NCBI GenBank assembly: GCA_025345505.1
Contig: JANVCC010000049.1
Span: 8,213,568 to 8,277,567, forward strand
Source of the DNA: Todiramphus chloris collaris
Taxonomy: Eukaryota > Chordata > Aves > Coraciiformes > Alcedinidae
Direction: 5' to 3'
DNA length: 64,000 nucleotides
The position numbers and the translations under genes are program-made. The notes beneath the pieces are model-generated. The model worked only from the letters and a program-made list of their open reading frames with translations, had not been told where the DNA came from and did not search any database. Below are positions 3,501 through 5,037 of the stretch, piece after piece; position 1 is the first letter of the stretch; each line of letters opens with the position of its first letter.

Positions 3501-4299
3501 GAACATATGGCAAATACCCACCAACCCCCCCCCAGCAAACACCACCTGCCACAGGCTGATAGCAATATCCAAGAAAAAACGTCTACACAACTCCCTGTGT
3601 TTCTCCCAGTATTACATACTAACAAAATCTGTATCACTCAGAAAAGCTCCAGGACAACTGATACATGTAGAACTATTGTATCATTGCTGGGCCCATTAAA
3701 CGATGGTTGGAGATCATTTACTGGTGCAACCGTACACGGTTTATTTTTGTTGGTTAAACTTGAACCATTGCAGAAATCAGAGATCGCTACTTTGTCTCCA
3801 GTAACGGTTACGACCTTGCTGCTGCGTGCTGTACGTTTCCCACCTACACCAGACACAGCAGGCCTGGATGAAAACAAATAAAGCACTTAAATCAAGCTAC
3901 AGATCGTCTATCCCGGCTCTCTTGTATTCCTCCTCCCTTAGAGGGATATCTTGCCTAGCCCCCTCCCCACCGGTCAGGAACCCGCATTTCCCCACAGCAT
4001 CACCGCCACTCCGCGCACCGGGACGGGCGGCGAGGAGCACACCTCCCGCCCGGCCCAGCGGAACGTGGAGCGACGCCGGGGCTGCAGCCTAGGCGGGACG
4101 GGCCTCGCTCCCGACACAGGGCCGGCCAAACACCCCCGTGCCCTCCCGGCGGCCTGAGCCGGGCCGGGCCGGGCCGCGCTCACCTGAGCCCGTGGATGAG
4201 GGGGGCGCTGTTCGATCTCCTCAGGCCGCCCCCGTCGCTCGGGGCCGCGGCGCTCCCCGGCGGCAGCTCCAGGTCCAGCTCCATTTTCTCCTGAGCCAT
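593..4299 (-). CDS. PABIR3: PABIR3-like (FAM122C-like) PP2A-B55 inhibitor family gene, 5' part only
   Basis: Two coding exons are visible on the minus strand. Exon 1 is complement(4184..4299), starting at ATG 4297-4299 and ending at a GT donor (4182-4183). Exon 2 is complement(593..671), preceded by TTTCCACAG and followed by GTAAGA. Exon 2 is 79 nt, the same length and phase as PABIR2 exon 2 in this window. It encodes a diverged version of the same peptide: it keeps [10 protein letters not shown] but has QAN for QPY and NRHSL for SRHSM. From memory, human PABIR3 also has Ala after the Gln and Asn-Arg near the end, and human PABIR2 and PABIR3 are head-to-head neighbours on Xq26.3, so I assign this copy to PABIR3. 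The family inhibits PP2A-B55 phosphatase. Exon 1 lies in a near-perfect palindrome with PABIR2 exon 1 and could be an assembly copy, so the true exon 1 might differ. Exon 3 onward is outside the window. Intron 1 is about 3.5 kb. Confidence 0.72.
672..4183 (-). other. Intron 1 of the PABIR3-like gene
   Basis: This is unique AT-rich sequence between the two minus-strand exons. It contains a 21-nt C homopolymer at 1080-1100, short A/T runs (around 1150, 2526 and 2810) and no recognisable transposon. The GC content rises sharply after about 3,950, where the CpG island begins. Small open frames in it carry no family signature. Confidence 0.5.
1080..1100. repeat. Poly-C homopolymer, 21 nt
   Basis: An uninterrupted run of C lies in intron 1 of the minus-strand PABIR3-like gene, so it is poly-G on that gene's sense strand. 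Its length is likely to vary between reads and individuals. Confidence 0.95.
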
Positions 4300-4593
4300 C
4301 GCAGCGGCGGCGGCTCCAGCTCCTCCCGCTCCGCCGCGACGCCCATTCACTGCCGGCGGCCGCAGCGGCTCCTCATGCCGCCGCGGCCCCCGGACAGGAG
4401 CGGCGCGGCCGCCCCTACAGGCCTCGCGGGCGGCGCCGCAGGCAGAGTCCGGGGGCGCGCCGGGCCCGGTGAGGGGGGCGGCCCCAGCAGCGCCCCATGC
4501 CGGGGCCGGCCCGGGGGGCGGCCCCTTCCCCCACCCGCTGCCGCTGCCGCACGGGCTCCCCGCGCGCGGCCCCACCACCCGCGCCGCTGCTCC
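4160..4593 (-). repeat. Left arm of a 434-bp palindrome (inverted repeat)
   Basis: The reverse complement of this arm matches 4604-5037 along its whole length, and I found only two differences. Base 4264 pairs with 4933 (a synonymous Leu codon change in exon 1) and base 4318 pairs with 4879 (in the leader). The arm covers the minus-strand exon 1, its leader and the first 24 bases of intron 1. Identity stops abruptly inside a GGCCC run at 4160. Confidence 0.97.
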
Positions 4594-4603
4594 NNNNNNN
4601 NNN
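4594..4603. other. Assembly gap (10 N) at the exact centre of the palindrome
   Basis: Ten N bases lie exactly at the symmetry axis (mirror sum 9197). The true spacer length and sequence are unknown. GC-rich hairpins often break sequencing and assembly, so this is where a fold-back artefact or a missing piece would sit. Confidence 0.98.
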
Positions 4604-5037
4604 GGAGCAGCGGCGCGGGTGGTGGGGCCGCGCGCGGGGAGCCCGTGCGGCAGCGGCAGCGGGTGGGGGAAGGGGCCGCCCCCCGGGCCGGCCCCGGCAT
4701 GGGGCGCTGCTGGGGCCGCCCCCCTCACCGGGCCCGGCGCGCCCCCGGACTCTGCCTGCGGCGCCGCCCGCGAGGCCTGTAGGGGCGGCCGCGCCGCTCC
4801 TGTCCGGGGGCCGCGGCGGCATGAGGAGCCGCTGCGGCCGCCGGCAGTGAATGGGCGTCGCGGCGGAGCGGGAGGAGCCGGAGCCGCCGCCGCTGCGATG
4901 GCTCAGGAGAAAATGGAGCTGGACCTGGAGCTTCCGCCGGGGAGCGCCGCGGCCCCGAGCGACGGGGGCGGCCTGAGGAGATCGAACAGCGCCCCCCTCA
5001 TCCACGGGCTCAGGTGAGCGCGGCCCGGCCCGGCCCG
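4604..5037 (+). repeat. Right arm of the 434-bp palindrome
   Basis: This is the mirror image of 4160-4593. It contains the PABIR2 leader, coding exon 1 and the first 24 bases of intron 1. Beyond 5037 the two flanks show no similarity, although the exon 2 sequences further out are clearly homologous. Confidence 0.97.
4821..4976 (+). promoter_or_regulatory. Two upstream ORFs in the PABIR2 leader, the second overlapping the main start
   Basis: If transcription begins upstream of 4821, the leader carries ATG 4821 followed by nine codons and TGA at 4848-4850. Immediately after it comes ATG 4851, which opens a 41-codon frame ending with TGA at 4974-4976. That second frame overlaps the PABIR2 start at 4898 in another reading frame. 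The main ATG has a good context (G at -3, G at +4). Both uORFs are mirrored in the left arm. Whether they are transcribed depends on the unmapped start site. Confidence 0.45.

What the first reader, a model, noticed from the sequence alone, without database searches (positions are those of the whole stretch)
4160..5037. A 434-bp-arm, almost perfect palindrome spans the divergent first exons of two PABIR paralogues
The arms 4160-4593 and 4604-5037 are reverse complements with only two mismatches seen, centred on a 10-N gap. They include both promoters, both leaders, both coding exon 1s and 24 bp of each intron 1. Exon 2 of the two genes is clearly diverged, so near-identity confined to the exon 1 block needs explaining. 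Either recent arm-to-arm gene conversion homogenised a shared promoter, or the assembler copied one arm at an unresolved hairpin. If real, it is a mirror-image promoter driving two PP2A-B55 inhibitors with identical N-termini.
Basis: partly seen in the sequence, partly recalled or inferred. Interest (0 to 1): 0.78.

Follow-up and report, generated by a model that had tools for sequence, protein, structure and literature searches.

The report
Mirror-image first exons of two genes
Two old sister genes that point away from each other carry almost identical first exons and upstream DNA as a mirror image, which looks like recent DNA copying between the two copies, although the exact centre falls in an assembly gap and still has to be read through.

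Summary
The palindrome is there as described: 434-bp arms (4160-4593, 4604-5037), two mismatches, meeting at a 10-N gap. It holds exon 1, the leader, the splice donor and 24 intron bases of two head-to-head PABIR/FAM122 genes. The genes are old paralogues: synonymous divergence over exons 2-9 is 0.996, against 0.036 in exon 1 (p = 1.2e-7), and the introns do not align. Both arms carry an intact exon 1 and a motif search saw no other candidate for the left gene, so two real exon-1 copies, recently homogenised by gene conversion or template switching, is the best reading. The caution is the centre. The gap is the only N-run in the window, both arms stop on the same base, both mismatches lie in the outer 159 bp, and the inner 275 bp are identical. 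Supernova prints 10 Ns at an unresolved graph cycle; the assembler used here is unknown. The promoter half may therefore be one sequence printed twice. Outer homogenisation is likely; a mirror-image promoter is unproven. No reads, transcripts or other birds were available.

The parts
4160..4593 (-). left arm of the palindrome: 24 bp of intron 1, exon 1 and leader/presumed promoter of the left gene
   Evidence: 432 of 434 bases match the reverse complement of the right arm
4604..5037 (+). right arm of the palindrome: presumed promoter/leader, exon 1 and 24 bp of intron 1 of the right gene
   Evidence: in the genome search one other full-length match, the left arm
4594..4603 (.). 10-N assembly gap at the exact centre
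   Evidence: only N-run in the window
4319..4593 (-). inner 275 bp of the left arm, identical to the right arm: may be collapsed
   Evidence: first mismatch is at offset 275 from the centre
4604..4878 (+). inner 275 bp of the right arm, identical to the left arm: may be collapsed
4184..4299 (-). left gene (PABIR/FAM122 family), coding exon 1, donor gtgagc
593..671 (-). left gene exon 2; exons 3-9 continue left of the window to about -9678
   Evidence: fetched left flank
4898..5013 (+). right gene (PABIR/FAM122 family), coding exon 1, donor gtgagc
5511..5589 (+). right gene exon 2
6950..7006 (+). right gene exon 3
7389..7432 (+). right gene exon 4
7514..7568 (+). right gene exon 5
7780..7881 (+). 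right gene exon 6
9208..9296 (+). right gene exon 7
9856..9917 (+). right gene exon 8 (start may be a few bases earlier)
12319..12415 (+). right gene exon 9 (end uncertain; later exons not sought)
4264..4264 (-). mismatch to right 4933: codon 12 CTG (left) / CTT (right), synonymous
4318..4318 (-). mismatch to right 4879, in the 5' leader

Best explanation
The window holds an old head-to-head pair of PABIR (FAM122) genes sharing one CpG island. Exons 2-9 and the introns have diverged freely, but the first exon with its splice donor and leader, present once per gene as inverted copies a few hundred bases apart, has recently been made nearly identical by copying from one arm to the other. Gene conversion is the likely route; replication template switching at the inverted repeat is a variant. 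The homogenised block ends 24 bp into each intron, where homology had probably already decayed. Shown: the inverted copies, the old age of the pair, the sharp contrast. Inferred: the copying mechanism, and that the inner promoter half and the centre are as printed. Proposed effect: two PP2A-B55 inhibitor-family proteins with the same N-terminal 14-3-3 docking segment and, if the inner half is real, mirror-image core promoters.
For: Exon 1: 1 of 28.2 synonymous and 0 of 85.8 nonsynonymous sites differ; exons 2-9: 70 of 127.0 and 47 of 449.0 (Fisher on rounded counts p = 1.2e-7 and 2.7e-4; fourfold sites 1 of 21 against 27 of 65). Arm 2 of 434 against exon 2 13 of 79, p = 9e-10. Past the arm the two first introns give only short or low-complexity matches (best E 0.012). 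Both copies have intact exon 1, donor and matching splice phase into their own exon 2. The left gene's exons 2-9 are open and the pair's dN is 0.113 at dS 0.996, so the left gene should need a first exon; a motif search of its strand from 672 to 4159 gave two hits to one three-residue motif and nothing like exon 1. The two copy-specific differences argue against a plain printed copy. A review gives mean conversion tracts of mostly 200-300 bp in yeast and 287-296 bp in hamster cells (PMC3924818, part 1 of one section read), the same order as the arm.
Against: No reads, depth, transcripts or second species. The centre is an unresolved gap; arms end on the same base; no difference in the inner 275 bp although two occur in the outer 159 (about 3% expected at the outer rate, a split chosen after seeing the mismatches). 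Human FAM122B and FAM122C, adjacent at Xq26.3, differ in the exon-1 14-3-3 site (passages of PMC4495292), so the identity is not a general property of such pairs. The same review cites a yeast mean minimum near 500 bp, and the title of a human Y palindrome study speaks of multi-kilobase tracts (listing), so tract length decides little.
Confidence: 0.55

Rival explanations
1. Outer arms real, inner arms collapsed. The two exon 1s were homogenised, but the 275-bp promoter halves differ, or a longer spacer separates them, and a short-read graph printed one inner sequence on both sides of the gap.
For: Both mismatches lie in the outer 159 bp, the part nearest the unique flanks; the inner 275 bp are identical; the arms stop on the same base at a 10-N run. 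Supernova writes a path through an unresolved cycle followed by 10 Ns, and 100 Ns or an estimated larger number for other gaps (Figure 3 legend, PMC5411770, passages); gaps seen here are 10, 100, 105, 217, 400, 5000, 5000.
Against: The assembler is unknown. Two mismatches are few: both falling in the outer part has a 13% chance. In the same paper's Figure 4 example two flattened cycles matched the reference exactly. Real palindromes may break short-read graphs too.
Confidence: 0.25
2. The whole left arm is an assembly error: the right arm was copied by a fold-back and joined to the left gene, whose true exon 1 is missing.
For: GC of 82% and an inverted structure are hard for sequencing; the gap sits at the exact centre.
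Against: The copy would have to end by accident 24 bp past a splice donor and meet the left gene's own intron on the right strand and in the right phase. A fold-back would continue into the right gene's intron. Two differences exist. Of 7 gaps seen in 344 kb only this one is flanked by a long inverted repeat; one 5000-N gap has a 34-bp inverted match at 82% in GC-rich sequence. Seven gaps are a small sample, and this is the only one of 10 Ns.
Confidence: 0.13
3. Purifying selection alone kept both copies unchanged since the duplication.
For: The 14-3-3 site in exon 1 is present, in variant forms, in human FAM122A, B and C (PMC4495292, passages).
Against: Needs 27 of 28 synonymous sites and about 300 bp of CpG-rich noncoding DNA frozen in two copies, while exons 2-9 changed at 70 of 127 synonymous sites; human FAM122B and C differ there.
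Confidence: 0.03
4. A recent inverted duplication gave the left gene a new first exon, replacing an old lost one, rather than converting an existing one.
For: Sharp block ends and near identity.
Against: Requires loss of the old exon and an insertion that restores splice phase; conversion of an existing copy is simpler.
Confidence: 0.04

Closest known systems
Sex-chromosome palindromes with arm-to-arm gene conversion (primate X and Y, sparrow and blackbird W)
   Same: inverted arms over 99% alike kept so by conversion; higher GC than flanks is described for primate X palindromes (abstract of PMC8981503)
   Different: those described are large (duck W palindromes 15.2-345.5 kb, passages of PMC7787181); here 434 bp, inside one CpG island, and only the first-exon blocks are shared. 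The sparrow/blackbird case is known to me only as a reference title
Human PABIR2/PABIR3 (FAM122B/FAM122C) pair at Xq26.3
   Same: adjacent paralogues of the same family (PMC4495292, passages); their head-to-head orientation is recalled, from no call
   Different: the human exon-1 14-3-3 sites differ (TLRRSSSAPLI, ILRRVNSAPLI); both copies here read [11 protein letters not shown], as printed there for human FAM122A
Quasi-palindrome correction by template switching (recalled, no call)
   Same: turns an imperfect inverted repeat into a near perfect one
   Different: usually described for far shorter repeats (recalled)

Membership tests
PABIR / FAM122 family | sequence similarity to a family member of solved structure | tested here: met
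   right protein residues 23-114 match 8so0 chain D (PPP2R1A-PPP2R2A-interacting phosphatase regulator 1), E = 2.6e-38; the left protein was not searched there but shares 60 of 76 residues with the right one over exons 2-5. Pfam-A returned no family for either
PABIR / FAM122 family | inhibits PP2A-B55 | not testable with these tools
   function inferred from FAM122A (PMC11233601, passages)
Palindrome under arm-to-arm gene conversion | arms far more alike than neighbouring paralogous sequence | tested here: met
   dS 0.036 against 0.996
Palindrome under arm-to-arm gene conversion | arms change together between species | not testable with these tools
   no other bird genome held
Palindrome under arm-to-arm gene conversion | continuous sequence across the centre | tested here: not met
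   10-N gap; so membership is not claimed
Palindrome under arm-to-arm gene conversion | GC higher in arms than in flanks | tested here: inconclusive
   arms 0.816, flanks 0.704 and 0.738 over about 260-310 bp, but in 50-bp steps the nearest flanks are 0.78 on the left and 0.78-0.86 on the right, close to the arm ends; a CpG island centre is GC-rich anyway
Collapsed-repeat assembly artefact | abnormal read depth over the arms | not testable with these tools
   no reads held

The most novel reading that the evidence does not exclude
A 0.9-kb near-perfect palindrome acts as one bidirectional CpG-island promoter and keeps the first exons of two otherwise old and diverged PP2A-B55 inhibitor-family genes identical by repeated arm-to-arm conversion, so that expression start and N-terminal regulation stay yoked while the rest of the proteins diverge.
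Probability: 0.3. Interest if true: 0.65.

Novelty: new member of a known kind. Interest (0 to 1): 0.42.

Why it matters
If real, it is a small, clean case of concerted evolution limited to promoter and first exon of a divergent gene pair, which would let conversion in a natural hairpin be measured across birds. If not, it is a useful example of how an assembly can print a mirror image at an unresolved GC-rich centre.

Tried and rejected
Rejected: chance (434 bp). A third PABIR exon 1 or a haplotig feeding the assembly: the genome protein search listed exon 1 at two places only (best candidates scored, so a lower bound); a 1,005-bp copy of the right gene's exons 7-8 lies on the same scaffold, and the 10 kb fetched around it shows no exon 1. 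The C8 match reads by eye as an unrelated GC-rich leader (sequence).

Led nowhere: exon-1 pattern in bacterial/archaeal and viral contigs, 0 matches. Pfam on exon 1 alone and on both joined proteins gave no family at E 0.001. MSP-domain search for the neighbour gene MOSPD1 (neighbour recalled) gave two places, neither on C33. The PDB FAM122A fragment over exons 2-5 is equally near both genes, 52 of 76 each, and at the 16 places where the genes differ it sides 7 with the left, 7 with the right, 2 with neither, so orthology is unresolved. Promoter motifs in the right arm: five GC boxes, no match to the CCAAT, TATA, NRF1, ETS, YY1, CRE or E-box patterns tried (patterns recalled). Paper searches for such a case: 5 listed; 0; 1; 12 of 35 listed; for the artefact: 26 (12 of 55 listed), 39 (0), 49 (10 of 175 listed); for the gene names: 8 (2), 19 (3). 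No title or abstract start listed describes this locus, but those listings are partial. PMC9796300 and PMC7757076 were looked at in passages only and gave nothing on palindromes at gaps.

Full report
Observation. The palindrome is real in the assembly. Arms 4160-4593 and 4604-5037 are 434 bp, reverse complements at 432 positions, and meet at a 10-N run, the only one in the window. The mismatches lie 104 and 158 bases in from the outer ends: one synonymous (codon 12, CTG/CTT), one in the leader. The inner 275 bases are identical.

Genes. The right gene (+) has exons at 4898-5013, 5511-5589, 6950-7006, 7389-7432, 7514-7568, 7780-7881, 9208-9296, 9856-9917 and about 12319-12415. The left gene (-) has exon 1 at 4299-4184, exon 2 at 671-593 and seven further exons left of the window, to about -9678 (left flank). 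Exon edges were set by eye from splice signals and the family's peptide motifs. The right protein matches PABIR1/FAM122A in the PDB (8so0, E = 2.6e-38). Both exon 1s encode the same 38 residues, including [11 protein letters not shown], printed for the tested 14-3-3 site Ser37 of human FAM122A (passages of PMC4495292).

Age contrast. Over exons 2-9 the pair differs at 70 of 127.0 synonymous and 47 of 449.0 nonsynonymous sites (dS 0.996, dN 0.113; three codons present in the right gene only were dropped); exon 1 differs at 1 of 28.2 and 0 of 85.8 (Fisher on rounded counts, p = 1.2e-7 and 2.7e-4). Block values of dS range from 0.27 (exons 4-5) to 1.7 (exon 6), so the estimate is rough and near saturation, but exon 1 at 0.036 lies well below all five other blocks. 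Past the arms the first introns give only short or low-complexity matches (best E 0.012). At a recalled avian rate near 2e-9 per site and year, 2 of 434 differences would mean about one million years since homogenisation; this is an order of magnitude only.

Is the left exon 1 real? The left gene's exons 2-9 are open and mainly conserved, so it should need a first exon. A search of its strand between 672 and 4159 for six short exon-1 motifs gave two hits to RRS, at 4075 and 3909, neither like exon 1; a very different first exon would be missed. The left arm joins the left intron 24 bp past a proper donor, in the phase that exon 2 needs. A printing error would have to do this by accident.

The centre. 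The assembly (1.17 Gb, 889 contigs) shows, in 344 kb examined, seven gaps: 10, 100, 105, 217, 400, 5000 and 5000 (the 5000s may be fixed-size gaps or withheld stretches). [quoted passage not shown] in its own worked example two such paths matched the reference exactly (figure legends seen in passages, PMC5411770). The sizes fit that assembler but do not identify it. If so, the sequence beside the gap is a chosen path. Of the seven gaps only this one is flanked by a long inverted repeat; the 100-N gap lies in a poly-C run and one 5000-N gap has a 34-bp inverted match at 82%. With a single 10-N gap seen, how other 10-N gaps look in this assembly is not known.

Mechanism. The best account is arm-to-arm copying between two inverted exon-1 copies in one CpG island. 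A review gives mean conversion tracts of mostly 200-300 bp in yeast, with one mean minimum near 500 bp, and 287-296 bp in hamster cells (PMC3924818, part 1 of one section), which suits a block of this size; a human Y palindrome study reports multi-kilobase tracts in its title (listing). Template switching at the hairpin would leave the same trace. Selection alone is unlikely because synonymous and noncoding sites are equally preserved.

What is not shown. Whether the inner halves are identical, whether they are promoters, and how far apart the arms lie is open. PMC4495292 says FAM122C arose by tandem duplication of FAM122B in mammals; the old adjacent pair here means either an older duplication or a second one, and the comparison with the PDB FAM122A fragment (52 of 76 for each gene) does not decide.

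Noticed in passing
window 9023-10023 and G000 C33:8758231-8759231 (L024:3231-4231): A 1,005-bp piece of the right gene with exons 7 and 8 has an inverted copy about 535 kb away on the same scaffold at 97.3% identity: a recent dispersed duplication or an assembly duplicate.
   Followed up: partly
4699, 4821, 4851 (+) and mirror positions: Three upstream ATGs in the shared leader; the third opens a 41-codon frame overlapping the main start, and the leader mismatch at 4879 changes its codon 10 (Pro in the right copy, Leu in the left; worked out by hand).
   Followed up: no
30367-31214 (-): Two open stretches matching reverse transcriptase (PF00078), perhaps a LINE of the CR1 kind (name recalled).
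   Followed up: no
about 63000-64000 and on to +64083: A GC-rich stretch (0.82 in the last 200 bp) that runs into a 5000-N gap just right of the window.
   Followed up: no
winpos -78125 to -78026 (L011:1875-1974): A 100-N gap inside a poly-C run with C on both sides; the window itself has a run of 21 C at 1080.
   Followed up: no
24309-24412 and 54779-54882: An inverted pair of 104 bp at 80%, perhaps dispersed repeats.
   Followed up: no
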